Below, in pieces: positions 3,255-53,700 of a stretch of 64,000 nucleotides of DNA. Numbering within the stretch: the stretch's first letter is position 1; every line of letters starts with the position of its first letter. The position numbers and the translations under genes were made by a program. The stretch is taken from the NCBI RefSeq assembly GCF_001619985.1, contig NW_017264193.1, positions 1,307,726-1,371,725 of the forward strand, read 5' to 3'. The stretch is from Xylona heveae TC161 (lineage: Eukaryota; Ascomycota; Xylonomycetes; Xylonales; Xylonaceae). Under the pieces are notes generated by a model that saw only the letters and a program-made list of their open reading frames with translations, made no database searches and was not told the origin of the DNA.

Positions 3255-3676
3255 CTGAAATGTTCAGCAAAGAAAATGTATTTTATACTTATAATACTCT
3301 ATTCGTATTTTTTTATTGGATGAAATATGATACTATCATATATGGTTCTTATTAGCTACATTTAATTATAAATTTATATGATATTTAATATATAATTTAA
3401 ATTATAATATTATAATCAAATTAAATTTAAAAATAAAATTTGAACTTTAATGCTTCACATATTGCAAATAAATTATTTAAAAGGATATTATATATTTTTT
3501 AATATTATTTAATTTAATAAAAAAATTAATAGATATTAAATTAAACTATAAAAAGAATTATTATTATTATTAATATTTTAAAATTTATAAATTAAATGTA
3601 TAATAAAATATAAAAAATTATTAGTATAAATATTAAAAAACAACTATTAAAATATAATATAGCAAATAATTGTTAC
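3255..3676. other. AT-rich spacer after TRAPPC11
   Basis: The base composition changes abruptly here. The last CpG I see is near 3304, inside ATTCGTATTT. The rest is A/T homopolymers and TTAATAA-like words with no coding signal. The first tens of bases probably hold the TRAPPC11 3' UTR. The final 5 bases, GTTAC at 3672-3676, are the target-site copy of the first Ty3 element. Confidence 0.7.
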
Positions 3677-3830
3677 TGTAAGAACTGTAACTGAAGGGAG
3701 AATAGAAGCTTGATTCTCTAAGTGAGCTCTTGCTCTGAGCTATATACTATGATGATGCTCCTTCTATATCTGGAGGTCTATGCTATAAGCTACACATAAC
3801 ATGTGTACACTCTATACTAGTGGCATAACA
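3677..3830 (-). repeat. 3' LTR of Ty3 fossil 1
   Basis: A 154-bp repeat, TGTAAGAACTG to GTGGCATAACA, of the same length as its partner at 11125-11278. It lies at the downstream end of the minus-strand element, next to the chromodomain-like tail. Confidence 0.92.
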
Positions 3831-3949
3831 ATTGCCTGCCACAGAAAAACCATTGTCTGTGATGGGAGAAGCAATAAAGCAAAAGGATATATCTATATGT
3901 AAATGCCATGTAAGCAAAGTAAAGCAAAGCAAAGCAAAGATAAAAATAA

Positions 3950-4306
3950 CTAGTCATGAATGTTGTGATGGTTTTTGAAGTTGATTAGAAGTTCTTGTCC
4001 ACCATGTTCATTAACATAAGGCTTGTTATGCCACTTGTCTTGCTCAGGCCAGTGGTTCCCTTGATAGTGAATGAGATACAATCTTTGGGGCTGCCTTCTA
4101 CATAACCTCTTGGTGTTAAGTATATGAGAGATTTCTTGGATGGTGGGTTGGTTGGTTGTCTTGTATTCTCTAGGCTGGACTGGTTCTGGTTCTTGTAGCA
4201 TGTCACAATTGAATGGATCACTGCCAGGAGCTGGTGCTAGTACTAAATGCACTGTAGAGATTACTGGATGGATAAGAATCAAAGCTGGTAGCTTGAGTTT
4301 GAACAC
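3950..4306 (-). pseudogene. Integrase C-terminus and chromodomain-like tail of Ty3 fossil 1
   Basis: This minus-strand stretch carries the pattern of fungal Gypsy integrase tails: a hydrophobic FKLKLP...HPVISTVHLVLAP segment followed by a chromodomain-like module with ILNTKR and YLIHYQGNHWPEQDKW. Such tails are thought to direct insertion to particular chromatin. It is part of the broken element and is not a host gene. Confidence 0.75.
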
Positions 4307-4329
4307 AACCCCTTTCCCAACTTTCTAAA

Positions 4330-5330
4330 GAATCTTGAATGGACCAACTTGTTGTGGCCCTAGTTTGGCTTTCCTCACAGAAGGTAGGCAATACTCTCTA
4401 AGTCTTAGCATAGCCCATCCTGACTTGAAGTCTGTCTCTGGATCACAATGCCTTTGGTTGTGGTAGTAGGACATAGCATGCTTTGCCAAGGTGATAGAAT
4501 TGGTGGCTGATCTTTAAGTAATCTTGTGAAGGTCCAGTCAGTCAGCTGGAAAATGTAGGTTTGCTCCCAACTTGTCCACTAAGATGTTGTAAACTTGTCT
4601 TGTTATAACACTATAGAGTATTTCATTTGGTGTGCTTTCAGTTGTGGAAGAGGGGGAGTTATTGATTTGGCCCTCTATAGTTGGGAGCTAGTTGCCCTAG
4701 TTCCCTTGCACTGCATCTACAAAGTATCTCAAGGTAATCTTGATCATTTGATTTACCTGCTCATCTTGTCCATTAGCACTTGTATGTATAGTGGTTGTAC
4801 TTATGGAATGTGTTCTGGCATGTGTAAACATTGCATTCCAGAATCCCTCTAGAAAGTGTCTGTCCCTGTTGGTGACTATGATGAAGGGGATACCTCATTG
4901 TGTAACAACTAAATCCCAAAACAAAAAAGCCTATGTTATCACTAAGTAGTCTTTGTAACTGGGTATGAGTTGCATGGCCTTAGTAAATTTGTCAATGACT
5001 GTTAAGATTGTATCAATGGCATTTGGGGCATGGAGAGACTCAGTCTCTGGGAGATCAGTAACAAAGTCTAAAGACAAGGTATGAAAAGGCTCTGGTAGGA
5101 AATCTATAGGTCTGAGTGTTGAGTATGATTGTAGGTAATGTGTGTGATTTCTCAGGCAGTTTGGACAGTGATGTATATAGTGCTTGATGGTCTACTACAT
5201 CTTAGGCCAGAAATATTTGGAGGTAAGCTGAATGTATGTCCTTTTCAACCCATGATAAGATTGATGGTTGTGGGTAAGCTTGAGGAACCTCTTATGCAAG
5301 GCCTTAGATAAAGTAACATAAAGTTAGTAA
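4330..5330 (-). pseudogene. Integrase region of Ty3 fossil 1
   Basis: On the minus strand I recognise an HHCC-type zinc-binding arrangement (HNHQSYHG and then HCPNC) near 5160-5290. Downstream is an integrase core around LSLDFVTDLPE at about 5040-5070. Family order and sequence pattern support the call. The region is decayed. Confidence 0.7.
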
Positions 5331-5869
5331 TCAATGGGGTCTTCAAAGAATAACATGTCATTGTGTATAACATATTGACTTAGGTAGGTTCTTAAACAGC
5401 CATCTTCAGGGTTGAGTTCACCATGTGTTTGTACTATGCTCTTTGCATTATTTAAAACTCTGTCATTCAAAATCCTTTGCAAGAGTTCTTGCTTTAGGGA
5501 TTCTCATATCTCTACCATAACTACTAGAAATGTCTTGTCTTTGGCATTTGGCCATCATGATAGTGCATCAGGCACTGGCATATCTTTGCCTTGTTGATAA
5601 ACCAGGGATAGTTTATCCCAGTATTGGGAGAGAAATACAGCCCAGTTAACCAATTAGTTATTCATCTTTGTAGGAGATTTGGTACTTAGCAATTTCATTT
5701 TGACTATTGCTTTGTTAGCATAGTGGTCTGTCAGTATGATGACATGAGGAACTTGTTTAACAAAAGGAATTGCTTTTTTCATTGTCCAAATCACTCTAGA
5801 CATTTCTAGCTCAGTTGGCCAGTATCTCCATTTAGCAGTAGTTGCTTCTTGACTTAGAAAGAAAACAGG

Positions 5870-6955
5870 TCACAATGAAGTTGAGGGAGGTATATGTATA
5901 ACATCCTCTAGCTCTGTCTTGCTGTCCATGACTTGATACACTCCAATGCCAAACCTGTACTCCTTTGAAGCATCTACAAAGAGATACATGTGTTTGTCAA
6001 GGTCAAAATGGTTGACAGCAGCTATTGTGACTGCATCCTTGAGGTCCTCAAAAGCAAGCCTCTGTTTTTCATCTAGTGTTATGCTAGTAGCCATTGCTGC
6101 TGCATGTCTTCTACCTTTTGCTAGTGTATCCATGTTGATTTCCCTTAACTTGTTGGCTTTCAGTTGTGATAACAATTTCACTCTTTGGGAGTAATACAGG
6201 ATGAGATGGTGATGCCATCCAGTGGTACCCAGGAAATGTTCAAGACATTTGAGAGAGTTGTACTGCTCTGGGTGCCATGTGTGTATAGCCTTGACTTTCT
6301 CTTCTGTAGTTGCTAGGCCAAGCCTATCCACCTTTTGTCCAAGCACTGTAATAGACTAATACATGAGATTGCATTTCTTTGCTTTCAATGTAATACTAGC
6401 ATCAGAGAGAATGTACATAACCTCATCAAGATGGAGGAGATGCTCCTTGAACATTTTGCTATAGACAATTGTATCATTGACATAACAAGCAACAAAATGC
6501 CAGCTTATATCCTTGAATTTTCAATCCATGAACTTTTGCTAATGTACTACTGATGTTTTGTTTCCCATGGTGGTTACTGCCATCATGTAGTGCCCAAGGT
6601 GGGTAACAAACATGGTTTAGTACCTATCATCCAGATGAATAACTTGTTGATAGTATGCTAATGCCATGTCTAAAATACTGATGAACTATGTACCATGTAG
6701 AGTGTCCAGGATCTGGTCTTGATGAGGAAGTAGATAACTGTCCTCTCTTTGCATTGCATTCAGAGGTCTTATATCCATTACAGGGCATGGTTTCTTTCCC
6801 ATGATAATGAAGACTTGTATAGTGTAGGGTAAACCTTCTAGACCCACTGGTATAACATGTCTGGTTTTGATCAATGGTATGACTGTCTGCTTGATATATT
6901 TTCTAGCATTTACACTTACATTAAATAATACTCTTGTCTTCATTGTAGCTTCCAA
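5870..6955 (-). pseudogene. Reverse transcriptase / RNase H region of Ty3 fossil 1
   Basis: The segment at 6686-6955 resembles the Gypsy RT fingers (VIPLIKTRHVIP, GKKPCPVMDIRPLN). The segment at 5870-6346 resembles the RT thumb/RNase H junction (LEHFLGTTGWHHHLI and then LFVDASKEYRFGIGVYQ). The order agrees with Ty3/Gypsy pol. The region is decayed. Confidence 0.8.
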
Positions 6956-8203
6956 GGCTGGGTTAACTTGTATTCATAGCTACTCCTTAGGATCTTCCTG
7001 TACAATGCCAAGTTGGTCATTGAATAGTGTCTTGTGCTAGGTATAGAGTAATTCCAATGCATCCTTTTGCTTGGTTGTTAGATCAGGGTTGATGTCAACC
7101 TGCTTGTATGTTGTAGATGTTGGATCAGGCAGCTCAATCTCTGCTAGAGTGGGATACTTGTACTGGGGCTGATACTCCTTGTTGAGCCATGAAACATATA
7201 GCATTCCTGACAGCATTGTTCCTTTTGTTGCAGCAATAGAAGTATCATCAGGTACTGGTACATTGACACTCAGGTCAACATCTTGAGATAGAAAACCTAT
7301 CCTGGCCTCTTGAAGTACCTCAGAGAGGCTGCTACTAAGCAGCCCAATGGATGGAGGTTTGCTCTGGGTAGTGATTAGAATATATAGGACCAGATTTCTA
7401 GAGCTGCCTGGAATATTTGCTGCAAGCTCCCTGTTTTCCTGTAGTTCCAGTTGGAGGGAGTGTAGAGGAGATTTAAGTTGACTTGTGTTTACTTCTGGTT
7501 CTTGTGTTGGCTTTTCAATACTTGGCATTTGGGCTGCCAACATCACTACCAATGTGGTTGTGGTAGACACTACTATGTCTTTTAGCATTGTAGAATGCAT
7601 AAAATACACCATTGTTTCCTGGCTAGCTTCTGCCCATAGAGTAGCAATGCTGGTTATTAGGCTATAAATGGTGCTAACAACATAATTTCTTGCCAGCATG
7701 CATTTTTCATTGGAAAAATTTGTATAGTACACATGTGTTTGGTCTACTGACAAAATCATGTGTAGGGATGAGGTGTCAGCTGTTATGGTGGTGCTCACTA
7801 AAACAAACTCATAATCTTGTCTTAGCTCTACTCTTTTTGCAAACTTGATAGGTATAGCTTGTGTGGTCTAGGCAGGGATCTTAGTCACTCTTGTAACTTG
7901 TATAGGAACATTTTTATAGTTCCAGTTACATCTAATATACATAGGCACAATCATGTTTTTACAACTATGAACAAGTAGAACACTTTGGCTTGGGTCTGCA
8001 ACCATGCCCTCCATGTCTATGATGTCTACAGTGATCAACATATTGGTACCAAGATTTGGCATGATGAAGAATGAACATGTCATCACCCCAACCTGCTTGT
8101 GATCTCTTGAACACATAAAAAATTTAATGAGGGTATGCTTTGTAGACTGTGTACATCCCAAACCTACTCTTTACATGTCTCTTGTAAAAGAGAGGTCTTG
8201 GAT

Positions 8204-8683
8204 TTAAATGTTCTTAGGTAGAATGAGCTTTATAAACTCTTTGTCCATGCTTGAGCTGCCATAGCCTGTATCTACCACTGTCATGTAGATGTTAGACATT
8301 TGAGAATTAAAAGAAATGTTGACTTCCATGTAGGTATAAGAGACTAAGTCAAGCCTGGAGACTTGCTTGGCAGGTGGTGCTGATGACTCAATGACAGTTA
8401 TCTCCTTAGCCCTTTTAGAAATCTTCTCTTTATGCTTTGCCTTGTCTAGATGTTTGTATAAGGCATTGTGTGTAAGGAATTTTGTGTAGCATTTTGTACA
8501 CTCTAATTCCTCTTGAACAAAGTATGTAGTGTCTTGCTTGTTAACAATTTCAGCTTGATTGTCATTGTCCTCCAAAACATCAAAATCTTCTTTAGCACTT
8601 AGCATGACCAAAGAGACATTGTTGTTGGGGAGATTGTCTGCATCATCTGCATGGAATGCTTGACACTTGTCTTTGGGCATCAA
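8204..8683 (-). pseudogene. C2H2-like finger plus aspartic protease region of Ty3 fossil 1
   Basis: The minus-strand frame shows C-x2-C-x12-H-x5-H (CTKCYTKF...HLDKAKH). After it come a linker and a protease-like VVDTGYGSS motif with the catalytic DTG triad. I recall several fungal Gypsy pol proteins with a similar finger just before the protease. It is part of the broken element. Confidence 0.7.
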
Positions 8684-8710
8684 GGTATTTTCTCTTTTTA
8701 CTTACAGGTA

Positions 8711-9610
8711 CTAGTTGTGTGCATTGCAGGTATCCTTGGGATTAGATGTTACCAATGCATGATCTTTATCCCAATGCTCTTTATTACAATACTTGCAAGG
8801 ATGTATGCCATAGCCCACATCTCTAGCATCTCTCCATGAGATTCCAGCCTGCATCATGTCCTGCCATGACCTGTATTTTCTTGGTCTTGGCCTGTTTCTG
8901 TTGGGTCTTGAAGAGGACAGAGTGCTGGAGTACAATCTTGAAGAAGACACAGGTATGGTAGTCCTAGAGACTTGCTATTCTTGTCTAGATGAGGACTCCT
9001 TGTGTCCATACTCTCAAATTAGTACTTCTTGGATGCTAGCTAGTTTAGTATTATATGTTCTAATCATGTTGCTGGATGGTCTCATGATGTTGTCCATTTG
9101 TAGAAACACTAATGCTTCTCTGCTAAAGGAGTTATGCACTTGTTGGACTATTTCACTCTTGTCACTTATTCTAGCCAGGTGTAGGAGGTGAATTTTTTTA
9201 GTAATGTGTTCTGTAGGTTTGATGCCATTGTTCCAAGAGAAATGCAAAGCTTTAGCATCAATTCTAAGTTCTTCCTCTAAGGGCATGAACTTTGCATAGA
9301 TTTAGGTGTACTATGCAATAATACTTCTGCTCATTATGGCTCTATTGTCTTTTGATAGAGAGTACAGCCAGTCATGACCAAAGTCAAAAGTAACACACTT
9401 GTGGACTGAATGCAACACTCTCTCCTTGCCATAACTATTGACAGCATCTTTGAGGTTATCAATGAAGGTTTGAGCCACATAAGTGTCTGGGGTGTTGGTT
9501 GGACAAAACTCTCCAATGGAGTCTGTCTTGAGCTCACAAGTATCACTGGTAGTGTTCTGTGTCAATTGCTGTTGTAGCAGGTTGTTTTGTGACATTAACA
9601 AAGACATCAT
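8711..9610 (-). pseudogene. gag-like region of Ty3 fossil 1
   Basis: Minus-strand stretches at 9311-9610 and 9014-9286 look like a fungal Gypsy capsid region. A compact Cys/His knuckle (CKYCNKEHWDKDH) in the 8711-8950 stretch matches the PCRHCGxxHWD type seen in fungal gag proteins. It lies upstream of the protease in the element's own direction. It is decayed. Confidence 0.65.
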
Positions 9611-11124
9611 TTAATTCCAGTCTGGCTGCCCACTTGGATAGTAGCCACCTGATGGATTGGCTGGGTTTATTAGTAGGGGAGGAGGAGGTGGCATCCTACT
9701 ACTGGCACCCATTGGTGTAGGTATGGGATATGCTGCCAGTGGTATGCTGGTATGTGTTTGTAGTTGCTGATATTGATTTTGTACTTAGGGATACAACCCT
9801 GGTAGGGGTATTCCCAAGTTCTCCAGGACTGTTTGTTCTATTGCATGGTCAGACTGTGAATTTCATCTAGACTCAGGCACTTGATAATCTAGCATGTTGA
9901 TGTCACTGTTACTTGACTTAATCAACAACAAACTATTGGTAATGTCTTCTGTTAAGAACAGTGGCAAACCTTGGTTCACCAGTCCTGTTGAGGGCTTGGG
10001 CAGTAGGAGGTAATATGCAATCTCTTAATCTGCCAAAGACTCCTCAGGAGTTTCTTGTAATGCTATTGTAGTATTTGTATAGCCTGGTTGGTCTACCAGC
10101 AAAAGAGATTGTATTGTTCTCTTGCTTGGACCTGGTGTTGCAGGACCAATTCCTAGGGAATTGGCAGCAACTAACAATCCTTCTTGGTAGTAGAGTGAAG
10201 GATGCTCACAACTCTCTGGTGCTCATACCAAATCAGTAGAGGCAGGGACTAGAGCTAAATTATTGTCTGATCTTTGAGGATTGGTTGTGCCACTCTCAGT
10301 GGTGTTGGTTGGAGGAGTATTGATGTATTCTAGCCTGCCATCAACACAGTGTCATGTTGGTTGGCTCCAACTCCTCCCTGAACTTGAAGATTGTTTGGAC
10401 TTCCCTTTACACTATAATGAAGCCATGGTGAACATTGCTGTTTGTATGCTGATGGATTAGCATACAAGGCAACCTTTTGTACAAGAGGAAGGTATTAGGA
10501 GGTATCTTGTAGGTACTGGTACTTTGACCTTTGGTAGAGCTTGTTGCTCAGCCTAAATATTGCTAGTAGCTAGAAGTACCTTGGAGACTTGCAAGTTGCT
10601 CTTGCAACAAAGCTTGGGCAGTTATGTCAATTGATGGGGTGGATATGAGGATTTTGAGGTCTGTAAAGGGATAGTATGGAAAAGTGTCAGAAACACTAGA
10701 TTTCTGATATACTACTCAATATCACAATTTTTCTATTGTTCCTTACACAAGATTCCCAGGAGGAAGCTCAAGAGCAATACAACTCTGAATGAGAGAGTAA
10801 GTCATGGAAAGTTAGAGTGCTGTTTGGCCACTCTACCACTCCAAGGAGAATGAGCAATGTATACCAGGGAATCTAGGTACTGTTTTCCTGATGCCAGCTA
10901 AGCTCAGAAAATGTAATGAGATTCTATTGTTTGTGCAATAGGTTCAAAGGTTAGTTCTAACAACATCATGATGCTTGGTGTCTTGATGATCAGAACTTCA
11001 CCATCACCACAGTGAAATATGAATCATCAATGAAAGAGAACACAAAAAAATGGCTGCTGGGAAACCAAGTCAGCCTGGCTGGCCCAGAGGACCAAAGGAC
11101 ACTTTTGATAGTGTTGTTACCAAT

Positions 11125-11278
11125 TGTAAGAACTGTAACTGAAGGGAGAATAGAAGCTTGATTCTCTAAGTGAGCTCTTGCTCTGAGCTATATACTATGA
11201 CAACACTCCTTCCATATCTGGAGGTCTATGCTATAAGCTACATGTAACATACATACACTCTATACTAGTGGCATAACA
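11125..11278 (-). repeat. 5' LTR of Ty3 fossil 1
   Basis: The 154-bp partner of 3677-3830. Inside it, on the element's minus strand, the sequence directly after the LTR reads ATTGGTAACAACACTATC. The TGGTAACA start is a plausible tRNA primer-binding site. Confidence 0.9.
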
Positions 11279-12185
11279 GTTATAGTTACTTTATATTTCT
11301 ACTTATGTTATGTATTAATTAACATATTCTATTATATAGAGTCTTGATAACTATTAAATAACTTTATTTTTTAACTATCTATTTATTTATTTTATTTCCA
11401 GGCCTTTACTTACAATAATAATAAAAATAAAATTTATTATAAAATAATAGAATTTTATTTATTATTATTAAAATTTAATTTAATATTAATAATTATAAAT
11501 ATTTTTAAAATGAATTTCATTAATTATTGATAATTATAAATTATTACAAGGTAATAAAATTATATTTAGTTTTAAAATTTAAGCTAGTACTTAATATATT
11601 TTACAGATAAATTAATTATTATAAATAAATAAATTAAATATAATTTTTATATAAAAATATAATTTTATAAAATCTATATTCTAATAATAATTAAAGTGTT
11701 TAAATAACTATTTTTTCTATATAATTTAAAAAAATATACTAATTAGCTATTTTTTAAAAAAGAGTTATTTAAATTTTTAATTAAATTTTTTTTATATATT
11801 GTTTTTAATATTAAATATATAGAGTATAAAATATAAAATATAAAAATATTTAAATGATTTTAAAATAACTATAATGTATAAATATATTCTTAAAAAATAA
11901 AAATATTTAATAATTATTTAAAATAATAAAATTAAAATAATACTTTTTTGTATATAATTTTTATTTAATTAATCTATTTAAATAACTAATATACTTGTAA
12001 AATATATAATTTATTTAATTAAAGTTTATACAATATTTTATTTTTATATTTATATAATTTTTTTTAATAATTTATTTATTAGTTTTTTTATTATAATTAT
12101 AATTATAATTATAATTGTTATTTATATATAGATAGTATTGATTTTTAAATTATATAAAATATATTAATACTACTATAAAGTACTA
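11279..12185. other. AT-rich DNA without recognisable genes
   Basis: Very AT-rich, CpG-free and without an open frame of note. Around 12116-12170 a segment (GATAGTATTGATTTTTAAA) resembles the terminal repeat of MITE family A and is probably a truncated older copy. Confidence 0.6.
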
Positions 12186-13064: not shown

Positions 13065-13262
13065 TACTATTTTACTAATATTTATTATTAATATCTATAA
13101 TAAAGCTTAACAAAATACTATTTTTTTCTATAGATAATAAAAAAACTATTATATAATATATAACTATGGCCCAGAATACTTATTTATAAAAATTTCAATA
13201 TATATTATATATAATAAAACTCTATAAAAACTACTTTTATTAGAATAAATATACTAGTTATA
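13065..13262 (+). pseudogene. LINE fragment, endonuclease region
   Basis: This aligns by eye with 36657-36850 of the large LINE copy, in the apurinic-endonuclease part of ORF2, with many C-to-T and G-to-A differences. It ends where hAT-like terminal sequence begins. It is a scrap of an older LINE insertion that also received MITE A copy 1. Confidence 0.75.
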
Positions 13263-17829: not shown

Positions 17830-19340
17830 GCCTGAAAGCTATGGCAGGGTCTATAGTTTAAATACATAAAATGTATATTGAGCTTTTAAAGGTCACTCTA
17901 GAATCAGTCAAGCTGATACTAGATATTATCCATCAATATAAAAACAAAAGAAAATTAGGAAAATAATAAAAATAGACAAAGTAAGAGTAATAAAAGTAAT
18001 AAAAGAGGGTCAAAGTTTGGTTTTTTTTTGGTTTTGGTTTTTTGATTTTAGAAATTTCAAGAAGTATTTTTATCTTGAAGCCTACTCCAGTCCTATAATA
18101 TTTCTTGTTAATGTTGTCTTTCTTGATGTAATAACTATATTTTTAATACTATTTTAGTAGTATCTAGATATTCTAGTAAGTGGTTCTAGTTTTTTCCAGT
18201 ATATAATATTTTCAAAGTAAGAACTTTTTCCTTTACTTTTTGTAATAAAACTTTTTTAGCTTCTTTTGTTTGAGAGCAGGACAGTAATAAATGAGCTGAA
18301 CTCTGAGTAAAGTTGTAGATAAAGCTATATTATTTTAATTCATATATAGATAGCCTGTATAGGTAGGATTTAAAGTAACCATATCCTATCTTGAATTGAA
18401 TAGCAGTTGTAACTAGTTTTCTTCTAAGGTTTTAATATCCCTCAAATAGCTTCTAGTGTGGAAAGGTTCAAAACTGTTTATAATATTTTCCTTTAGAAGT
18501 AGTTTGCTATTGGTAAATCCATTGCTCAAGAATAAGCTTTTTCAACTTTCTTTTCAAGTAGCTATATGAAGTATATGCATCCTTGTGTAATTTGTTAGTA
18601 TATGTTGTTCCATGTTTGGTTGCTTTATCTGCTTTTTCATTTTCTAGTATTTCTTGATGTCCTGGAATCCATTGAAAGTAGATTTAAATATTATTGTCTT
18701 TGAAAACTTGAATAGCAGAAAAGATTTGTAGTAGTAGTTATTGTCTAGGTCCAGCTATAGGGTATTATATTGTATCTAAAATACTTTGATTGTCTGTAAA
18801 TATCTAGATAGCTTTAGAGTTTATAGTTGATTTATATACTATTCATTCTATTGCTTTAGTTAAAGCAAAGAGTTCTGCATTATAGATTTCTATATATGAG
18901 CCTAGATGCCAGGAAAAAGTATATATATCTTGATAGTATATAATATAACATTTTGCTCCTGCTGTTGTTTGTAGTGATCCATCTGTATATACTATACAAT
19001 TTTCTTCTAGAGTTTGCCTTTGAAGAGTGTTTAGCATTATTTAGTGTTTTTCTGTTATATTAGACTTGAAGTACTTGTTTTTGATAATAGATATAGCTGG
19101 AAATTGTTTCTATAGAGGCCATTTAGTTATTGTATAGGATTCTAGCTCTGGTGTAGTAGATAAAATAGTAGCTAACTTAGCTAGTATTTTTATATATTGA
19201 GTAGAATATGCTTTTGATTTTAACTGAGTAGGTTGTTGATTCCAGTCTAGGTACTTGGTAGTATCTATATCTTGTCCTATTTGTAATATTGGAAGAAATT
19301 TTTTAGGAGTTCTTTGTCTAAGTAGATGTAACAAGTAGGC
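17830..19340 (-). mobile_element. Tad-like LINE, 5'-truncated copy 3
   Basis: This is the reverse complement of the 3' part of the large LINE (about 38980-40510). It includes the 3' UTR words ACCATAGACTCTGCCATAG, the RNase H domain (18843-19037: VYTDGSLQTTAGAKC, SWHLGSYIEIYNAELFALTKA) and the preceding RT-RNase H linker (19110-19376). The RNase H part is better preserved than in the large copy. It is truncated in the 5' direction of the element at about 19342, where a hAT terminus abuts. 5' truncation is usual for LINEs. Confidence 0.85.
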
Positions 19341-19342
19341 TG

Positions 19343-22300
19343 CAGAATGGGTAAGGGTAGCCTGCCAGGCTCCCAACCTGGTCCTCTACCAGGGTCAGGT
19401 TTGGATAATGTTTTGACAACCTAACCCATGGACCTGGGTTACCATTTTGGCATCTACCTGACCTATGTAACCCAAGTTATACCCATGGGTAGTCTAGGAT
19501 TAGGTCAACCCTACATAAAAACCTAATTTAACTACTTAGTGTTATAAATAAACATAAGGATTGCTATAAATATCACTATAACTAGCATTAATACTTATTT
19601 ACAGGCTAATAATATAGATTATATTGGCTAAGTAATTAAATTATAAGTTGGCAAATGTAGAATCACTTATTACAGCTATGATTGCATAAATTATAGATGG
19701 TAATAAAAATATCAAATGATATGAATCATTTCATTCTTGGACAATCATGACTCTTTGCCTTTAAATAAACAAATATACAATGTATGTATACTAACTAGTA
19801 GCTAATACAGTGTACAGGATTTTTATTTCTAGGGTGCTTTCATCTACAATTTCTATATTCCTTCATGCCTTGTCCAAGGCAATGGTGTTGCCTTTTCATC
19901 TTGTGTTTAGGTAAACCAGTGTTTGGATCTTTTACTACCTTTGTAGCTTTCTTGGTTTTTTTGATCCATTCTTGGACCTTTTTAAGTATCATTATGTTTG
20001 AGTAATTTTTGTAGTAAATCATTAGTACAAGAGGCTGCTAGTAAAACTAGGGAATATTTTCTTACAAGACAAATTGAAAATGCTGGTGTGAAAAAATGAT
20101 ACTATTATAGTGTAGCTCAATTGTAGTAATCTTTGTAGTAATCTCTCAGTAATTAGTAGTAAATTCTTTACATATGTAGCTAGATTTACTTACTAAATAT
20201 CATTTTAAGTACTAGTAGAGGTTGTAGAAATTTGGAAAGCAGTTTTGCTCTATTATTAAATGCATGTTAGTAAAAAGTAAGAGCAGAGTAAGAGTAAAGT
20301 AAAACAAACATGAGAGTAAAGTAAGAGAAGGGTGAGGTAAGAAAGGTAATGTAGAGTGTATGATGAATAAAATGTGTAGAAATAAACTTACTTTCAAAAA
20401 TTATCAATGACATAAATGGTTTAGAGGTTTCTTTTGTTACAAAGGTTAAAAACTTCTAGCTAATTTTGTTGGCTTTAGAATAGATATAGATGGTAGTTAA
20501 GACAAAAAAGTAGGCTGTAAGTAAGTGGGAGTTACAAATAATATTGAATTATCAACATTAGTATTACAATCATTGCAATCCTGCAAAGCAATATTGTTTT
20601 CATGATCCTCATTACTCATTTCATTATTACTTATAAATGACTGTTCAAGAGCCTGCCTTAGTTTAGATTACTATTACTTTTCTTCTTTAATCTTATCTAT
20701 ATAATTTTGACTCTTAACAACCTTATTAGCTTCTTTTTAGATAACCTTATAGTAGTACAATAGTATAAGATTATGGATTGTTTCTGGTCTGAGCTATGCT
20801 CTGCAGTATGTACAAATGTCATAAGTAATATTAAATAATTACTCAATACCAATACCTGCTGCAGGCACTGCAAGTATATCCCTTGCCATTCTTGCTAGCC
20901 CAGGGAATTTGTTTTGCTTTTGCTTCCAGTACTAAAGTAGCTCTGTCTTTGCAACAACCCCTAAATCTTGATTAGTAGGATTACTACAATTATTACTACA
21001 ATTGTAAATATTACTTTTATAGAAATACCTAGTAATCTTACCTGGTCCCTGATTGCTCTTCTCTCTTTTCTAATACTTGTTGCTTCTAATTGTTGATGTA
21101 AAGTCATCTTCATTTAGAAGCTCTACAGGCTATGCTGGTTCTATACAGTTTGCATTAAAACTATACTTATCTTGATAAAGTTAAAAGAAATTTTTTTTGT
21201 ACACCTTCTTCTAACTTGGTTCCTAGTTTGCATTGTTGTAAAGAGACAGCTTATATTCAGAAGCTAGTATAGTTGTACAGAAATAGATTCATTTTCTATC
21301 ATTATAGATCTTTCTATAATAATGACTAAGTTTTTTCAATAGGCTTGAAGAGCATTAACTATATTCTGTTTCCAGGATTACTGCTTTTGTTGTAGAAGAA
21401 ATATGTAGTCATCTATATAGTTGAATAAATTATTATACATAGAGAAAGTATGATGAATTGTAGCACCTTTAGTTTTACCTAGCACCTGTGTATACTTTGT
21501 AAATAGCTTGAGCAATTCAATTACATACTTGATATGCACTCATTCATCAGCTGAAATAGACATACTTTGCATTGAATTATCATCACTTAGTAATCCAAAC
21601 CAAGCATTTAGAGGCTCTTATAGTTGGATTGTACAAGCATATTACAAGTAGAATTCTATTGTGTCTAGACATCTTGTGTTAGGTTGAGACAAAGATTGAA
21701 GCTACTTTATATTTTATAAAACTACTCATGTCTCTGAGGACTTGCTTTGAAAAACACAGCCAGTTTGTACAACTACATAAATGTCTCATTAGTGATTGCT
21801 ATAAATATTGCATCAAATGAGAATATTAGACCATACCTTGGAGATGGTTCTAGGAATGCTATACTGCTTATTGCTAACATCATCTATCATGTTTGTCTTT
21901 TACTCTGTAATTGTGTTGTCATTGATTAGTATTATACAAATGTTTTCAATTAATTCTTTAACTACATGTTAGATAACATGAAAAAGATAAAATAAATGAC
22001 CTGAAAATGCTTGAAATGACTGTTCCAGAAGCAATGTCTCCAAGTTCTAAGCAAGTATAGTGTTGTTACTTGTATTGTCTAAAACAACTACAAGTAGCCT
22101 ATCTTCAAGCTTATGCTTCTGTATTACTCTTGCAACTAGGACTGCTATATTTTGTCTAGTATGTCTTCCCTTGACCTACTCAAACCCAAGAAACACCTCC
22201 TGGAATTTCCAATTGTTGTCAATGAAATATGCTAGGATAGCAAAAAACCTATACCCATTGAGACTTGTCCAGCCATTAATTGCAAGTAAAACCTTTGAAG

Positions 22301-25209: not shown

Positions 25210-25772
25210 TCCCTCTATCTCTACCAATAGGACTTCAAATCAAGTACAAATTGATTTAAATTAAAGAAAACCTCTCAGGCTCTTAATTTTATCTTGACTC
25301 TATTTAAGTTAAAATTGATGGAGTTATAAGAGTTTGAAATTTTCTTTATTTTGAAGACAAGAGAAGAAAGGTTTCTTTCCTCACTACTTAACCAAATCTT
25401 ATTTTATTTACTCTAAACTTGTTTTATATGTTTATCTACCCATTTTATTTAATTTATCCAAAATTCACAAAAGAATCACTAGTGGTTGTGGTTCTTTTGC
25501 ATCCTAAATTCTAGGTGCTAAGTACTATACTACTAAGTGAAAAATTTTCACCCCCCCTGCAACTCCACCAATCCTTATTGAATCTTCTTTAAAACTTGTT
25601 TACTGCTTTATACATGCAAGAGTATTGTATTTCATTTTGAATTTTGTTATTATCATTGTTTGATGTTAAGTTATTAAGTGTTGAAGTTTTTATACTTTTT
25701 GTATTACAAAATACCTACCCCTTCATAACACCATCAATTCTTTATCAATTCCATTTCTGCAAGTTGTTTCTG
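25210..25772 (+). mobile_element. LINE copy 1, first part of 5' region (before Ty3 insertion)
   Basis: This matches 47085-47530 of the second LINE copy nearly base for base apart from C-to-T and G-to-A changes (for example CAAATCAAGTACAAATT and AAATTCTAGGTGCTAA). The sequence ends in GTTGTTTCTG at 25763-25772, where the second Ty3 element is inserted. The LINE resumes at 33351. The start near 25210 is approximate and is where the two LINE copies stop being similar. Confidence 0.8.
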
Positions 25773-27294: not shown

Positions 27295-27299
27295 GAATG

Positions 27300-34530: not shown

Positions 34531-34943
34531 CTTGCTTTTAGAGGAAGAGGGATATTAATCTTGGCTAGACCCTTCTATATTTTGAATAGTAAATTCTTGG
34601 CAACCTTGACAATCAAGACCTAAGAGAACTATACCTAGTTATAAAAGGTAGATTGTAGACCAAAACCTGGACTGGATTTCCACTAGATTAAGTATAGACT
34701 AGGCTTGGTTTATACCATAATTTAGTAAAAAAGAGTAAGTATAATCTTGGTAGCAAGGAGTAAGGCTTGAAAGATACCTGTAAGTAAAGTCTTGCTTCTT
34801 GAGAGAGTAATTCAGGAAGGTAGCAAAGAGTAAGTCTAAAGGCAGGACTTGCTCTTTGAAAGAGTATGAGTTAGACACCTATAACAAACTTTTCATCTTT
34901 ACCACCATCTTTCATTGCTTTGATTGAAAATACTTTAGTCAAG

Positions 34944-36350: not shown

Positions 36351-39300
36351 ATAGAAATTCAACAGATATTTAAATAGTCCAATACAATTGTACTAGATCT
36401 ATTAATATCATATATACATGTCTAGATCTAGCAACATCCTTAACAGACATTCTTTTATTACAAGAACCCTGGATTGGACCAAACAACACTACTATATCAC
36501 ATCCTTCATTTACAACAATATTTTCTTTGTCATTATTAAAAAGACCTAGAGTATTAGCTTTTGTTACAAAGCTTAAACCAGACCTACAATGTACTGTTGA
36601 AACAATAATTCAAGATGAAGATTGTTTTATTTTACAAGTACAAAGTACTATTATTTTACCAACATTCATTATTAATATCTATAATGAAGCTTAACAAAAC
36701 ACAACATCTTCTCTATAGACAATAGAGAGACTATTACACAATATATAACCATGGTCTAAAATACTTATCTGTAGAGATTTTAATGTACACCATGCATGGT
36801 AGAACTCTATGAAAACTACTTCTATCAGAGCAGATGTACTAGTTACATGGCTTACATAACATTAATTCCTCTTAATAAATACTCTTAATCTAATAACTTA
36901 TCTTGGAAATCAAAGAAATACTTCTTCAGTATTAGATCTAGCATTTTCTATACCTAATCTTTATTTTTATATACAAGATTAGTAAATACTTGAAGACTGG
37001 GTAACAAGATCAGATCATAAAGCAATTAAATTTATATTAAAAGGAGCAAAATTAGAAGAGGTTATCCACCTTATACATACTTCTTTTAATGTTAATAAAG
37101 CCAATTAGAAGATCTTTCAAAATATAATTCAGGAGCAAGAAAAGTATCATCTAGATTAACTACAAAAAAATGTACTAAAAAATACTATTTTAACTACCAG
37201 GCTAGAAGAAATAGCATGTACACTACAACATGCTATTAAAATAGCATGTCAAAGATTTATTCTTCAATTTAAACTATTTCCAAGATTTAAACCATGGTGG
37301 AATGACCAACTATCATCTCAAAAAACTAAAGTAGCTTAAGCAAAGAGACAATAGAAGCAAAACAAAAGCCAAGCTCTATGGAAAAAATATACTACTAAAA
37401 GAAACAGTTTCTTCAAAAGTATTAGACAAGCTAAAGAAATATCCTGGACAAACTTTCTAACAAATGCTAAAAAAGCTAATGTTTTCAAAGCATATTACTA
37501 TATCAATCCAAGAAAAGTAAAAAAACTTCCTTTTATCCAAGAACTAGCTATCCTAGAAACTACTTTTGAAGAAAAATGTTCAGCTTTCTTAACTACTTTA
37601 TTTCCTACACTACCTACAAGTCAAGGAATTATAGGAGTTCAATACAAGACTCAAATATGCCCTTGGCCAAAGATTACTTAACAAGAAATCAAGCATGCCA
37701 TTCAAACTTCTGCTCCAAAAAAGACTCTAGAACCTGATTAATTATCTTTTGCAATCATTTAAAGAGCATTTCAATACATTCCAAGATGGTTTATTCTAGT
37801 ATATTAACTACTATTAGACTAAGGATATTATTCTATTAGCTGGAGACAAGGTATAGGAACAGTATTAAAGAAACCATTAAAGCCTGACTATACTTAATCA
37901 AAAGCATATAGGATAATTATACTCCTTAACTGCTTAGGCAAGATTTTAGAAAAAATTATAGCTACTAGATTATCCTATCTAGAAGACAGTCAAGACCTAT
38001 TACATCAAAAGCAAATGAGAGGTAGAAAACAAAAATTAGTTATAGATGCAGCTATGATACTTACCCATGATATTCAAGAAGCTTGGAATCAAAAACAAGT
38101 TTTATCCTGCTTATTCTTGGATGTAAAAGGAGCATTTGATCATGTTTCAATTATACAATTACTACAAGTTCTACAGCAACTTTAGCTACCAAAAGTAGTA
38201 CTTAACTAGATAAAATGCTTTATGATACAAAGACAAATCAGTCTAGCTTTTGATGGACAACAACCTATGACAGCTATCAATACTAGAATTCTACAAGGCT
38301 CACCTCTATTACCTATCTTATTTTTATTATACTTAAGATTTCTATTCAACTACATTCAGGATAGATTCCCTACAGTTAAACTACCTAGCTATATTAATGA
38401 TATAGCTATAGTAGTCCAAGAAACTACACCTATAGCTAACTGTTTAATCCTTAAGGAAATTACTAAACTAGCCTTTACTTGGGGAGAAGAAAATGTTATT
38501 GCATTTAATGATACAAAAACAGAGCTTATTCACTTTCAAAGAACAAAAACACCAAGCCAAGCTACATGTACACTATTAAATGAAACTATAATAGTTCTTA
38601 GTACCTGTGTTAAATGGTTAGGAATTTGGTTTAACTTCAAAATATCTTTCAAAGAACATATTACTAGAAAAGTAACAGCAGCAACAAGAGCCTTTCACAG
38701 TCTAAGTAGACTACTTGGATCAGAAAAAAGAATATCTGTTCCAGCTGGAATTACCTTATACAAAGCTTGTATTACATCTATTAGTGACTTTGGATCTCCA
38801 ATCTGGTAGAAACAACAAATAAACTACAAAAACCTCTTTCAAAAACTTCAAAATCAAGCCCTAAGAAAGATTCTTGGATGCTTTAAAACAAGTCCTATAC
38901 AAGCTATAGAGATAGAAGCATGTTTATTACCTGTTAACCTCAGGCTAGAACTTCATAGCTATAAATATGCATTGAGAATGACTATACTATGCCTGTCACA
39001 TCTACTTAGACAAAGAACCCCCAAAGAATTTCCTCCAATATTACAAATAGGACAAGATATAAATACTACTAAGTATCTAGACTGGAATCAATAACCTACT
39101 CAGTTAAAATCAAAAGCATATCCTATTCAATATATAAAAATACTAGCTAAATTAGCTACTATTTTACCTACTACACCAAAGCTAAAATCTTACACAATAA
39201 TTGAATGGCCTCTATGGAAACAATTTCCAGCTATATCTATCATTAAAACAAGCACTCCAAGTCTGATATGATAGAAAAACACCAAACAATGCTAAATATC

Positions 39301-40240
39301 CTTCAAAGGTAAATTCTAGAAAAAAATTGTATAGTATATACAAATGGATTACTACAAACAATAGCAGGAGCAGGATGTTATATTACATACTGTCAAGATA
39401 TATTTTTTCCTGGCATCTGGGCTTATATATAGAAATCTATAATGCAAAACTCTTTGCTTTAACTAAAGCAATAGAATGGATAGTATATAGATCAACTATA
39501 AATCCTAAAGCTATCTGGATATTTACAGACAATCAAAGTATCTTAGATACAATATAATACTCTATAGCTGGATCTAGACAATAACTACTACTACAAATCT
39601 TTTCTGCTATTCAAGTTCTCAAAGACAATAATATTTAAATCTATCTTTAATGGGTTCTAGGACATCAAGAAATACTAGGAAATGAAGAAGTAGATAAAGT
39701 AGCCAAATATAGAACAATATATACCAACAAATTACACAAGGATGCATATACTTCATACAGCTACTTGAAAAGAAAGTTGAAAAAGCTTATTCTTGAGCAA
39801 TGGATTTACCAATAGCAAACTACTTCTAAAGGAAAATATTATAAATAGTTTTGAACCCTTCCACACTAGAAGCTATTTGAAGGATATTAAGACCTTAGAA
39901 GAAAACTAGTTATAACTACCATTCAATTCAAGATAGGACATGGTTACTTTAAATCCTACCTATACAGGCTATCTATATATAAATCAAAATAATATAGCTT
40001 TATCTACAACTTTACTCAGAGTCCAGCTCATTTATTACTGTCCTGCTCTCAAACAAAAGAAGCTAAAAAAGTTTTATTACAAAAAGTAAAGGAAAAAGTT
40101 CTTACTTTGAAAATATTATATACTGGAAAAAACTAGAACCACTTACTAGAATATCTAGATACTACTAAAATAGTATCAAGAATATAATTATTACATCAAG
40201 AAAGACAATATCAACAAGAAATATTATAGAACTAGGGTAA
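36347..40240 (+). pseudogene. LINE copy 1 ORF2: endonuclease, reverse transcriptase, RNase H
   Basis: ATG 36347 starts MNRNSTDI, followed by IVQYNCTRS. The AP-type endonuclease follows (LLLQEPWIGPNN at about 36450-36490, SDHKAIKF near 37010-37030). RT blocks are at 37840-38420: VLKKPLKPDYTQSKAYRIIILLN, then FLDVKGAFDHV, LQGSPLLPILFLLYL and the catalytic region read as YINDIAI. RNase H follows at about 39330-39560 (IYNAKLFALTKAIEW, WIFTDNQSILDTI). A Cys/His tail with AHLLLSCSQTKEAKK is near 40020-40060. The 38222-38809 RT segment keeps the frame of the start. The RNase H segment is in another frame, so at least one frameshift is present, besides many TAG/TAA. Endonuclease-RT-RNase H order and fungal type point to the Tad1/I group. 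Confidence 0.85.
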
Positions 40241-40530
40241 ACTTTAAGATGAAAATACTCCTTGAGATTTCTAAAATCAAAAACCCAAAACCAAAAAAAA
40301 AACCAAACTTTGATCTTCTTTTATTACTTTTATTATTTTTTACTTTGTCTATCTTTATCATTTTCTTTATATTGTACTAATTTTCTTTTGTTTTATATTG
40401 ATGGATAACATCCAGTATTAGCTTGACTAATTCTAGAGTAACTTCCAAAAGCTCAACATATATTTTATGTACTTAAACCATAGACTCTGCCATAGCTTTA
40501 GGACTGTATATAGAATAAACAAACAAACAA
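40241..40530 (+). mobile_element. LINE copy 1 3' UTR and tail
   Basis: The 3' UTR is shared with copies 2 and 3, including ACCATAGACTCTGCCATAG at about 40477-40495. It ends in a short AAACAAACAAACAAAT-type tail near 40520, as LINE 3' ends do. Confidence 0.75.
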
Positions 40531-48840: not shown

Positions 48841-48842
48841 TA

Positions 48843-49800: not shown

Positions 49801-50512
49801 TACTTGAATCAATAAAAAAAAATATTTGTTTTAGCTAAAATCACTTTATATAAAGCCTGTACTATATCTATTAGTAATACAAGGACTTTAAACAAAACTA
49901 GTTATAACTATCATTTAATTCAAGATAGGATATAGTTACTTTAAATCCTACTTGTATAGATTATTTATATATAAGTTCAAAAAATGTAGTTCTATCTACA
50001 ACTTTACTTAGAGTCCAGCTCATTTATTATTATATTACTCTTAAATAAAAATAGTCAAAAATATTTTATTACAAAAAGTAAAGAAAAAGTTTTTACTTTA
50101 AAAGTACTATATACTGGAAAAAACTTGAACTACTTACTAGAATATCTAAATACTATTAAAGTAGCATCAAGAATGTAATTACTATATTAAAAAAAACATC
50201 ATTAACAAGAAATACTATAAGACTAGGATAGACTTTAAGGAAAAAATATTCCTTAATATCTTTAAAATCAAAAAACCAAACTTTAACTCTCTTTTATTAT
50301 TGTTATTGCTTTCATTCTATTTATTTTTATTATTTTCTTTATATTGTACTATTTTCTTTCTTTTTTTTTCTTTTATTTTATTTTAATAGATGATATCTAA
50401 TATTAACTTAATTAATTCTAGAGTAACTTTTAAAAACTTAATATATATTTTATGTATTTAAACCATAGACTCTGCCATAGCTTTAAAACTATATATAGAA
50501 TGAATAAACAAA
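49801..50512 (+). mobile_element. LINE copy 2, 3' part
   Basis: The sequence after MITE A copy 2 matches 38720-38790 of copy 1 (RT C-terminal side), then jumps to about 39890-40510 and ends in the shared 3' UTR (CATAGACTCTGCCATAGC). It therefore lacks most of ORF2, with one deletion of about 3.5 kb at the MITE and a second of about 1.1 kb near 49878. Confidence 0.8.
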
Positions 50513-50930
50513 CAAATAATAATAATTTTTAATAATTTTAAATTTTTTTAAAATATATTTAAATTAATTTAAATCATTTAAATATAATAAAAAATAAAAA
50601 ATAAAAATAATAAAAAAATAATTATAATAATTTATTTCCTATTTGAAACTAGCTTACTTTATAAACCAGTCTAACTTTAAAGCTCAATATTATACCATTG
50701 AGCTAGAAGAGTTTTTTTCTAAAAATAGTTTAAGATAAAAATATATATAATAGAAAAAAATAAAAAAAATAAAAAAAAAATTTTTCAGCTAAAGATTGAA
50801 CTCAGGTACTTAGGTACTTATAATATTTATATATTTTTAATTAGAAAATAGCTTCTCAAATAGTATATTTTTTTAAAATATATTTTGTATAATTAAAATA
50901 ATTTAAAAATTTATACTATTTGCATGTAAG
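50513..50930 (-). mobile_element. MITE-like element, family A copy 3, left end missing
   Basis: The right terminus TTATACTATTTGCATGTAAG is followed by TA (50931-50932), and the tRNA-like core at about 50640-50800 is in the same orientation as copy 1. The left inverted end is absent. It begins directly after the LINE tail. Confidence 0.65.
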
Positions 50931-50934
50931 TAAT

Positions 50935-51616
50935 TTTACTACTTTAAATACTTAAAATATTTATATACTTTGACTTGAGTAATTTAGTTTTTTTTAATAA
51001 TTAGAATGAAATTTAGAATTTTAACTGCTAGCAATCATCTGGTAAAAACTTTTTTTGCTAGTTAATATAAATTTATAATTTTCTAGTAAAGACTTCTTTT
51101 AGTTTTTTAATCTAGATATAAATTACTCTGGAAAAAATTTTTATTATTAATTAATATAAATTTAAAACTCTTTGAAAAAGACTTTCTTTGGCTTTTAAAT
51201 CTAAATATAGGCTTTTTTAGCAAAGACTTTTTTTATTTATAGATGAATTTTAAATTGAAATTAAATTAATATTAGATTTTCTAATGATTTTTAAAATATT
51301 TTTAATTTTTAAATTAATTTTTTAATATTTAAATATTACAACTAACTTAAACTTATAATTAAATGCTAAATTTAATATTTAATTATTCTATAAACAGTTT
51401 AAATATTATTTATAAATAAATAAAATAGTTTTAAATATATTAGTTTTAAAACTAATAAATAATTTATTATAATATTAAAAAAACCTATAATTATTTTTAA
51501 TAATTTTAAATAATTTAAAGTGGTTTATTAATTATAAAATTTTAAATAATAATTTTAAATAGTTTTTATATAATTAAAATTTTATTTAAAATTATTTATT
51601 AAATTATATAAAAGAT
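50935..51616. repeat. Dispersed AT-rich repeat with internal 45-bp array, copy 2
   Basis: The partner of 45890-46610. The array at about 51017-51245 has four to five units. It ends AAAAGATACTTAAG followed by TA, like the right end of MITE B copy 1. Confidence 0.6.
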
Positions 51617-53700
51617 ACTTAAGTATTGATTCCATTACCTATACTTGATACAATACATGAGTAACAAATATCTTGAGCAGAATAAATGACTTAAAAAACA
51701 ATAACTTTTTAATATTTAAAAACTTCTATATAATTTTAAAATTCAATATAATATTAATAAATAAATATAACTATATAGTTATATTTTTTTTGCTTTTTAC
51801 TTTTATTATATATTATCAAGATTAATAATTTTTTCTATTTGCTAGCAATTATTATGCTTTTTTACTTTATAATTAAATATTAATAATATATATATCTAGT
51901 ATATACAGTATACTGGCTGGCTAAATTTTAAAAAAAAAATATAGATAAAATATATAAATTATATTGATAGATTATATTAAAAATCAAGCTTTTTTATCTC
52001 TTTATATTTGTATTATTGCTGGCATAGCAGGTTTATTTAGCTAAATAAAAAAAATAGATTCTGGTTTTATATATAATTAGATTTTTTATAGAAGTAACTA
52101 GTATTTAATTATAATCTTATTTGTAAATAAAATCTATAATATAATAAAAGTATAATATAAAAATAAATGGATCCTATTAAAAATTATACAATATTTATAA
52201 TTTTTTTACTATAGTTAGTTATAACTATAGTTATATTAAAAATTTAATTAAATAAGCTATTGAAAAAAGATATATAAATATAAAAATTAAGTATCTTTAA
52301 ATAAACTTTAATTAAATAATTTAAAAACTAGCTCAAAACTTAAAATAAAATAAAATTTTATTAATTTGTAATACTTTGTAATTATTGGTAATTAATATTA
52401 GTAATCAAAATTGATTTATAATCATAATTAATAGTCAATTTAAATCAATTTAAAAAAAATTTACAAATTATTAATATTAAGTTTAATTTTTAAAAATATT
52501 ATTTAACAATTGATTAATTTATTATTGTTTGGTTTTTTTATATAAATTATTTATTAAATATTTTTTAAATAAGATCAATACTTGTTTTTTATTAAATACT
52601 TTTATTATATTTAAATATTATTAATTAAGTTTGTATTAAATAAATATTAATAGCATAATTAAATATAACTTAATAAAAATTTAAATTAAATTTTTAATTA
52701 TAAAAACTATTTCAAATTGGTTTTTGAAATATTATAATTAAATAATCATTTTCAATTATTTTGAATTATTCTAATTTATTAAAAATAATAATAAGTTTTT
52801 TTTAATTATATTTTAGTTTTAAATAATATACATAATTAATTTTACAAAAGCTTTTTATGTTATTAATTTTATTTGATTTTTATTTGGTTTTTTTGATTTA
52901 ATTTAATTTCAATAATAATTATTTCTTAATTCAAAAAAATAAAAATAAAAAACTTATAAAAAAATTAAAAAATTAAAATCCAAAAAAAATATATCATTTA
53001 AAAAACTACTTTTTAATTAAAAAAATATATAAATATTGAAAGTATTTAAATATTTAATTTTAATCCCTAATTAACAACTTATTTTTAATACTTTTAGTAT
53101 CTATATAGTTTAAATTAAAAATATTTTTAAAATATTTTTTAACTATTATATTTTTTAATTTGAAATTTCTTAATTATTATTATTTTTTATTTAAAAAAAT
53201 TAATTCAATTTAAAATTAAATGTAATTGAAAATAAAAAAAAATAAAACAAAGCTAAATATATATAATACAAAAACTTTTTAAAAAAATTATTATAATTCT
53301 TATATTTATATATAATAATAAATTATATATAAATTAAAGACTTTACTATTAAAATAAATTTAATAATTAGAAAAAAATTTTATACTTAACCTTAATTTAA
53401 AATTATTTATTAAATTATATAATAAATTTTTAAATATTATAAGACTTTAAATTTTATGTTTTCTTGCTTACTATATTATAATTATAGTAATAATGAAGAA
53501 ATATATAACTAACTTTAATAGATTTATAATAATTATATACCCTAATATAAAATTATTATTATATACTTTTTAATAAATTAAATTTCATTATATTTATAAA
53601 ACCTATACATACTATCACATCATGATAATAAACATTTTTTTTATATTGTTCTGTCGTTTTATATCTACTTTTGAGTAAATCAAAAAAATATTTAATTGTA
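51617..53700. other. Extremely AT-rich stretch, nothing recognised
   Basis: There is no open frame and no CpG until about 53655. 52980-53110 resembles a decayed family A core (AATATATAAATATTGAAAGTA). 53270-53430 ends like family B. Normal composition returns between 53655 and 53750. Confidence 0.6.

What the first reader, a model, noticed from the sequence alone, without database searches (positions are those of the whole stretch)
3305..53655. A 50-kb block with apparently no CpG dinucleotide
Reading the window by eye I find CpG up to about 3304 and again from about 53655, but none in between, although TpG and CpA are common in the better preserved elements. RIP as known from Neurospora prefers CpA, so near-total CpG loss with CpA retained in the same elements is unusual. 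It suggests CpG-directed deamination: a CpG-preferring RIP variant, or methylation followed by deamination.
Basis: seen in the sequence. Interest (0 to 1): 0.85.

Follow-up and report, generated by a model that had tools for sequence, protein, structure and literature searches.

The report
Fungal retrotransposon block without any CpG
In the endophytic fungus Xylona heveae, the retrotransposon stretches examined, including a 50-kb block that may be a centromere, hold no CpG at all, apparently because a repeat-directed mutation process removed it, and one retrotransposon there seems to have kept multiplying in a form without CpG.

Summary
Confirmed: 3306-53654 holds no CpG (about 1,050 expected), while flanks and 20 sampled stretches keep observed/expected 0.82-1.01. 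The window is Xylona heveae. Nine further stretches on seven contigs hold none in 52,950 bases (about 1,480 expected). Six Ty3 copies show how: at ancestral CpG sites inferred from five copies, the sixth reads TG, CA or TA in 1,823 of 1,833 ungapped cases, CG in none. CpA is only 10-32% hit, CpC and CpT 2.5-10%. Loss was C-to-T on either strand, largely separate in each copy, and too complete for its few transversions to be passive 5mC decay. I read it as a CpG-first, RIP-like mutator; DIM-2, RID-like and DNMT5-like genes are present, none shown responsible. Against: a single-copy Ty3 is emptied, and five identical DDE_3 copies keep CpG. New here: LINE copies share a CpG-free ancestor (0 TG/CA doublets, about 38-66 expected), and changes on the open copy's side are mostly silent (18 of 23, against 14 of 66). 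CG-directed RIP is already predicted for Uncinocarpus; completeness and the LINE are the news.

The parts
3305..53654 (.). CpG-free block, transposon-rich, 9-42% GC per kb; candidate centromere or pericentromere (inferred, no CENP-A data)
   Evidence: 0 CpG, 943-1,052 expected; 32 reverse-transcriptase hits on 11 of 17 contigs, mostly clustered, three of them in this block.
3677..11281 (-). Ty3-type element A (terminal repeats 3677-3833 and 11125-11281, 93% alike); CpG-free, strong TpG/CpA excess; no second DNA copy found
   Evidence: repeats; RT at C1:1314057-1314497 minus = window 6332-6772; TG 1.39, CA 1.38; itself and two short hits on C5
25773..33132 (+). Ty3-type element B with RT, integrase SH3 and chromodomain matches; relatives on C2, C3, C4, C9, C10, C11 and at contig ends; stops in the pol frame of all six copies read
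37589..40306 (+). LINE copy (RT hit 37880-38629); 37589-38886 is 93% identical to an open copy on C11; differs from it mainly by C-to-T at CpA, CpC and CpT
18011..19440 (-). second, partial LINE copy in opposite orientation
   Evidence: (I1, I2)
25300..25772 (.). edge of an older repeated element into which Ty3 B seems to have inserted; the same about 470 bp recurs at 90-93% identity on C2, C4, C5, C11, C14 and C16 and at 87% on C3
47220..48840 (.). paralogue of that interrupted older element (matches 25345-25644 and 33346-35247)
   Evidence: D3, D7, D10-D12, D20
1479..3251 (+). left flank gene: TRAPPC11-like exon (Gryzun domain); flank has normal CpG
54137..56715 (+). right flank gene: TMF1-like (TMF_DNA_bd and TMF_TATA_bd domains in two frames); flank has normal CpG

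Best explanation
Xylona heveae has, or recently had, a RIP-like genome defence that mutates cytosine to thymine in repeated DNA and takes CpG first and essentially completely, then CpA, then CpC and CpT at low rates. Ty3 copies lost all their CpGs largely after they separated, each site falling on one strand or the other, so copies differ by TG against CA at the same site. Because top-strand and bottom-strand conversions are interleaved almost at random along each copy, the loss must have taken several rounds of partial conversion, or local repair, rather than one whole-strand event (inference). The likely agent is the RID-like enzyme, possibly guided by CpG methylation laid down by DIM-2 or kept by the DNMT5-like enzyme (inference; no enzyme was tested). 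A consequence is a ratchet: a transposon lineage that still works after losing its CpGs has no prime target left. The LINE in these clusters looks like such a lineage.
For: SHOWN: 0 CpG in the block and in 52,950 bases of nine other stretches; close edges (on C2 the last CpG lies about 260 bases before the Ty3 match begins). Six Ty3 copies: 93-98% of differences are transitions; TG/CA doublets 92-157 per pair, controls GT/AC 6-23 and AG/GA 9-41; leave-one-out, 1,841 cases: 1,823 TG/CA/TA, 10 other, 8 gapped, 0 CG; CpA 10-32%, CpC 2.5-10%, CpT 4-8%. Stops in the frame taken as Ty3 pol: 86 TGA of 221 over six copies, as expected from CGA codons. LINE: open frame reported as 941 codons; the 1,301 bases read have 0 CpG (38 expected), 433 codons without stop, Arg 13 AGA, 2 AGG, 0 CGN; 0 TG/CA doublets in 1,298 + 1,396 columns against about 38-66 at the Ty3 pair rates; changes on the open-copy side silent in 18 of 23, on the window side in 14 of 66 with 9 stops, Fisher p = 2e-6. 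Methyltransferases: DIM-2, RID-like, DNMT5-like.
Against: Ty3 A has no detectable second copy yet is fully CpG-free, so repetition may not be what is sensed, or its copies are gone. A DDE_3 transposon has five copies identical over 701 bases and still holds 19 CpG there (o/e 0.47), so repeated DNA is not always hit; it may be very recent, too short, or in other chromatin. The copies' TG or CA choices agree somewhat more than independence predicts in 15 of 15 pairs (0.52-0.66 observed, 0.46-0.54 expected, z 0.5-3.5), so part of the loss may be shared, or sites may favour one strand. Strand choice shows weak local clustering in some copies (z 0.4-3.1). No methylation or sexual-cycle data. Leptosphaeria maculans most likely encodes Dnmt5 (PMC12543289, passage) but shows a CpA signature (PMC4352252, passage), which speaks against DNMT5 setting CpG preference.
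Confidence: 0.72

Rival explanations
1. Passive decay: CpG methylation kept in heterochromatin by DIM-2 or a DNMT5-like enzyme, with ordinary slow deamination of 5-methylcytosine emptying CpG over a long time.
For: A DNMT5-like and a DIM-2 gene are present; losses are C-to-T on either strand; single-copy Ty3 A is also emptied.
Against: Transversion divergence between Ty3 copies is only about 0.3-1.1% (2-7% of 13-17% mismatch), or 0.002-0.006 per lineage, while CpG survival is under about 0.2% (0 CG against 1,823 converted). That asks for a CpG loss hazard over a thousand times the transversion rate, far above the tens-fold ratio that I recall for mammalian methyl-CpG. CpA is also hit at 10-32%.
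Confidence: 0.15
2. Position, not repetition: a heterochromatin-bound CpG mutator acts on anything placed in these blocks, whether repeated or not. This overlaps with the best explanation (an active CpG mutator) and differs in what is sensed.
For: Ty3 A is single-copy but emptied; the dispersed five-copy DDE_3 element keeps CpG.
Against: Chromosome-end Ty3 copies (L038, L039) are emptied, with CpG-bearing sequence starting within about 260 and 450 bases of the main match, so the domain would have to match the transposon closely.
Confidence: 0.25
3. The transposons never had CpG (chance, base composition or origin), so there is nothing to explain by mutation.
For: Holds for the LINE ancestor in the parts compared.
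Against: For Ty3 B, 92-157 TG/CA doublets per pair and 86 TGA of 221 stops show that CpGs were present and lost after the copies separated.
Confidence: 0.02
4. Sequencing or assembly artefact.
For: The assembly has gaps here: 10 Ns at 34157-34166 and 425 Ns in L038.
Against: Ten stretches on eight contigs are affected, different copies carry different TG/CA choices at the same site, and a 433-codon frame is open within CpG-free sequence.
Confidence: 0.01

Closest known systems
RIP of Neurospora crassa (RID-dependent)
   Same: C-to-T on both strands, in transposons, sampled gene-rich DNA spared, close edges; RID-like and DIM-2 genes present here
   Different: Neurospora prefers CpA (PMC4165359, passages); here CpG loss is complete and CpA only partial. 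Timing and enzyme untested here.
Predicted CG-directed RIP in Uncinocarpus reesii (reference 7 of PMC4165359, which I take to be Zemach et al. 2010; passages of PMC4165359 seen; original not read)
   Same: CG rather than CA marked as RIP site, in an ascomycete with RID-like and DIM-2 genes
   Different: Another fungus; the passages seen do not speak of complete loss or of a CpG-free functional transposon. Closest precedent.
CpG signatures in Tuber, Microbotryum, Rhizoctonia (PMC4352252; PMC4014442; passages)
   Same: C-to-T bias at CpG in transposons or genome-wide
   Different: Partial bias. In Microbotryum 37-40% of copies carry it, linked there to a Masc2-like enzyme; for Tuber another study found no enrichment of such changes (PMC4165359, passage); in Rhizoctonia genes are hit too.
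X. heveae in the Ascomycota RIP survey (PMC7882544, passages)
   Same: Same species, placed in Class 2 of that survey: a group of twelve fungi with RIP-positive windows making up 0.37-0.65% of the genome
   Different: The term CpG occurs 0 times in its held main text. By the thresholds quoted in PMC3828140 (passage), Ty3 A and B look unmutated on the substrate index, (TG+CA)/(GT+AC) 1.34-1.40, and only just mutated on the product index, TA/AT 0.90-0.92.
crapaud retrotransposon of Podospora (PMC10787394, passages)
   Same: Asks whether a retrotransposon evolved to escape RIP
   Different: The authors conclude against an arms race to escape RIP; no loss of target dinucleotides is described in the passages seen.

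Membership tests
RIP | C:G to T:A transitions in repeated DNA, both strands | tested here: met
   93-98% transitions, TG and CA outcomes in every copy
RIP | CpA as preferred site | tested here: not met
   CpG converted in 1,823 of 1,833 ungapped cases, none retained; CpA 10-32%
RIP | single-copy genes spared | tested here: met
   flanks and 20 sampled stretches at o/e 0.82-1.01 (a sample of 193,004 bases, not the whole genome)
RIP | needs duplicated DNA | tested here: inconclusive
   Ty3 B repeated but Ty3 A single-copy now; five identical DDE_3 copies keep CpG
RIP | acts before meiosis and depends on RID | not testable with these tools
   A RID-like gene is present; no cross or knockout data
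MIP (methylation without mutation) | repeats methylated but not mutated | tested here: not met
   sequences are mutated; methylation itself not testable
Passive 5mC deamination | CpG loss in proportion to neutral divergence | tested here: not met
   complete CpG loss with transversions only 2-7% of differences; the yardstick ratio is recalled
DNMT5 | methylase plus SNF2 domains in one protein | tested here: inconclusive
   C11 locus: PF00145 in one frame and PF00176 in the adjoining 1,119-aa frame; that they form one gene is inferred

The most novel reading that the evidence does not exclude
A LINE in Xylona heveae has evolved to contain no CpG, so that a CpG-first genome defence has no prime target in it, and has gone on multiplying inside the CpG-emptied regions. 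It would be a transposon that adapted to a mutational defence by losing the defence's target site.
Probability: 0.45. Interest if true: 0.8.

Novelty: new variant of a known kind. Interest (0 to 1): 0.6.

Why it matters
RIP surveys rest largely on CpA and TpA indices, and a recent kingdom-wide study concludes that RIP-like defences share a preference for CpA (PMC12543289, passages). A genome in which CpG is the first and exhausted target falls outside that picture and is probably under-counted by those indices (inference). It offers a clean natural readout: each ancestral CpG records which strand was hit, so rounds, strand bias and target choice can be read from sequence. A CpG-free LINE would show the transposon side of the arms race.

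Tried and rejected
Chance and base composition: rejected. CpG-free ancestor for Ty3 B: rejected. One-shot whole-strand conversion: rejected, since TG and CA alternate along copies (same-neighbour 0.52-0.62 against 0.50-0.56 shuffled). Full independence of loss between copies: not quite borne out. TG/CA counts in other window repeats were uninformative: short or heavily CpA-mutated pairs. Species identity from the TRAPPC11 exon failed; DIM-2 settled it. Sharpton 2009 on Coccidioides (recalled as reporting CpG-poor repeats) is not held; Zemach 2010 and the X. heveae genome paper were not read. Searches aimed at a CpG-depleted or RIP-escaping transposon (one search returned no paper) gave no such report in what I saw: listings, plus passages of PMC12542154 and PMC10787394. 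The library holds open papers only.

The Ty3 rate used (24 doublets in 1,300 columns) comes from one 1.3-kb comparison and gives about 50 expected; whole-element pairs give 1.4-2.4% of columns, or about 38-66. In one search the doublet list of the second LINE pair was cut at eight kinds; one search recounted it in full and found no TG/CA. The direction of the 23 open-copy-side changes is assumed from C/T asymmetry, without outgroup.
Full report
WHAT IS THERE. The window lies in a fungus of 24.3 Mb in 17 contigs. A DIM-2 protein read from contig C7 is 100% identical to one of Xylona heveae TC161, recorded on a contig of exactly C7's length, 1,440,092 bases; a second methyltransferase matches likewise with C9's length. 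Between a TRAPPC11-like and a TMF1-like gene sits a 50-kb block of transposons and AT-rich remnants. It contains no CpG between 3304 and 53655, where about 1,050 are expected. Flanks and 20 sampled stretches are ordinary.

HOW FAR IT GOES. Ty3 element B has relatives in inner clusters of C2, C3, C4, C9, C10 and C11 and at contig ends. The nine stretches summed, from C2 and C3 ends and from C3, C4, C5, C9, C10 and C11 (two), contain no CpG in 52,950 bases, with about 1,480 expected. At the C2 end, CpG-bearing DNA stops about 260 bases before the Ty3 match begins; at the C3 end it starts about 450 bases after the main match, and 114 after a further short LTR match.

HOW THE CpGs WERE LOST. I aligned six Ty3 B copies (C1, C2, C3, C4, C10, C11: the six matches over 6 kb; the C9 copy of 5.6 kb at 75% and the shorter ones were left out). 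Differences are 93-98% transitions. The telling class is a doublet TG in one copy against CA in another, as a lost CpG would leave when opposite strands are hit: 92-157 per pair, against 6-23 for GT/AC and 9-41 for AG/GA. Taking as ancestral CpG those sites where the other five copies show both TG and CA and nothing outside TG, CA and TA, the held-out copy has TG, CA or TA in 1,823 of 1,841 cases, other doublets in 10, gaps in 8, and CG in none. In the same copies, C-to-T rates at CpA are 10-32%, at CpC 2.5-10%, at CpT 4-8%. TA at former CpG sites (6-33%) runs roughly parallel to CpA conversion in that copy, so one strand seems to be hit first and CpA activity to follow (inference).

Strand choice is close to random from site to site: same-neighbour frequencies exceed shuffles by z 0.4 to 3.1. 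Copies agree with each other at 52-66% of sites, above the 46-54% expected from their TG shares in all 15 pairs, z 0.5 to 3.5: loss was largely but not wholly independent, or some sites favour one strand. A single event that deaminated a whole strand would leave long runs of one kind. I infer several rounds, each partial, or local repair. Passive decay is disfavoured because transversions are so rare.

STOPS. In the frame taken as Ty3 B pol (28500-32291), 86 of 221 stops in six copies are TGA, 83 TAG and 52 TAA; at the TGA codon columns the commonest other codons are CAA (89), TGG (37) and TAA (36), CAA being what CGA gives when the other strand is hit.

THE LINE. Not all of the block lost CpG in this way. 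LINE copies at 37589-40306 (+) and 18011-19440 (-) have no TpG/CpA excess (0.82-0.95), whereas Ty3 A and B do (1.25-1.43). Besides itself, 12 matches to the LINE stretch lie in the genome, 11 at 91-96% identity and one at 84%, near the RT hits by position. The copy on C11 has no stop in a frame reported as 941 codons. I read 1,301 bases of it: 0 CpG (38 expected), all 433 codons open, Arg only as AGA or AGG. Against the window copy there are 92 differences and no TG/CA doublet; between the two window copies, 135 differences and none. At the Ty3 pair rates about 38-66 would be expected. So the ancestor of these copies had no CpG in the compared parts. Changes where the open copy has T or A and the window copy C or G are silent in 18 of 23; the reverse kind are silent in 14 of 66, with 9 stops, close to the 83:305:60 (silent:replacement:stop) of all possible such changes. 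The simplest reading is that the open copy's lineage was under purifying selection while CpG-free. In the RT-domain hits, TGA is 3 of 46 stops in the nine mutated LINE rows (two of them, on C14, look like duplicates) and 7 of 22 in the six Ty3 B rows; this is a rough count on a short domain. Transfer from a CpG-poor source, a subfamily effect, or CpG in the unread part remain open.

MACHINERY. The methylase search found three loci: DIM-2 (methylase, BAH, DUF7893), a RID-like enzyme (the EQT motif I recall as typical of RID is visible) and a methylase frame next to an SNF2 frame, DNMT5-like. None is shown to act here.

AGAINST A SIMPLE REPEAT RULE. Ty3 A is emptied though no second copy was found. 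A DDE_3 transposon with five copies identical over 701 bases keeps 19 CpG there, half of expectation.

LITERATURE. CG-directed RIP was predicted for Uncinocarpus reesii (PMC4165359, passages). CpG signatures are reported in several fungi (PMC4352252; PMC4014442; passages). X. heveae was placed in a low-RIP class by a survey whose held main text does not use the term CpG (PMC7882544, passages). PMC12543289 (passages) concludes that RIP-like defences share a CpA preference. I therefore file this as a new variant of RIP-like mutation: CpG-first, and complete in the retrotransposon stretches read.

Noticed in passing
G000 C1:732200-732900 (L044), C1:1709334, C3:1448542, C3:2560633, C6:1028021: DDE_3 DNA transposon: five copies 100% identical over 701 bases, open frames 392-448 aa, away from the RT-bearing clusters, with 19 CpG in 701 bases (o/e 0.47): apparently a very recent amplification not touched by the mutator.
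   Followed up: partly
G000 C6:1544890-1547525, C3:93-2251, C8:93-1031: Ty3 B relatives lie directly against contig ends; on C6 the match ends 2 bases before the first telomere-pattern match. The element carries a chromodomain match.
   Followed up: no
G000 C14:646600-660319: Matches on C14 are mirrored around about 653,460 with equal scores (LINE and other repeat hits on opposite strands), suggesting a large palindrome.
   Followed up: no
33346-33670 and 33786-34530: Tandem duplications of 168 and 374 bases next to Ty3 B, the latter with 10 Ns between its copies, so possibly an assembly effect.
   Followed up: no
25018-25136: 23-base tandem array, 5.2 copies, 85% matches, inside the block.
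   Followed up: no
11300-13400 and 49000-53000: Very AT-rich parts (10-13% GC) with CpA also depleted: probably old, heavily mutated remnants.
   Followed up: partly
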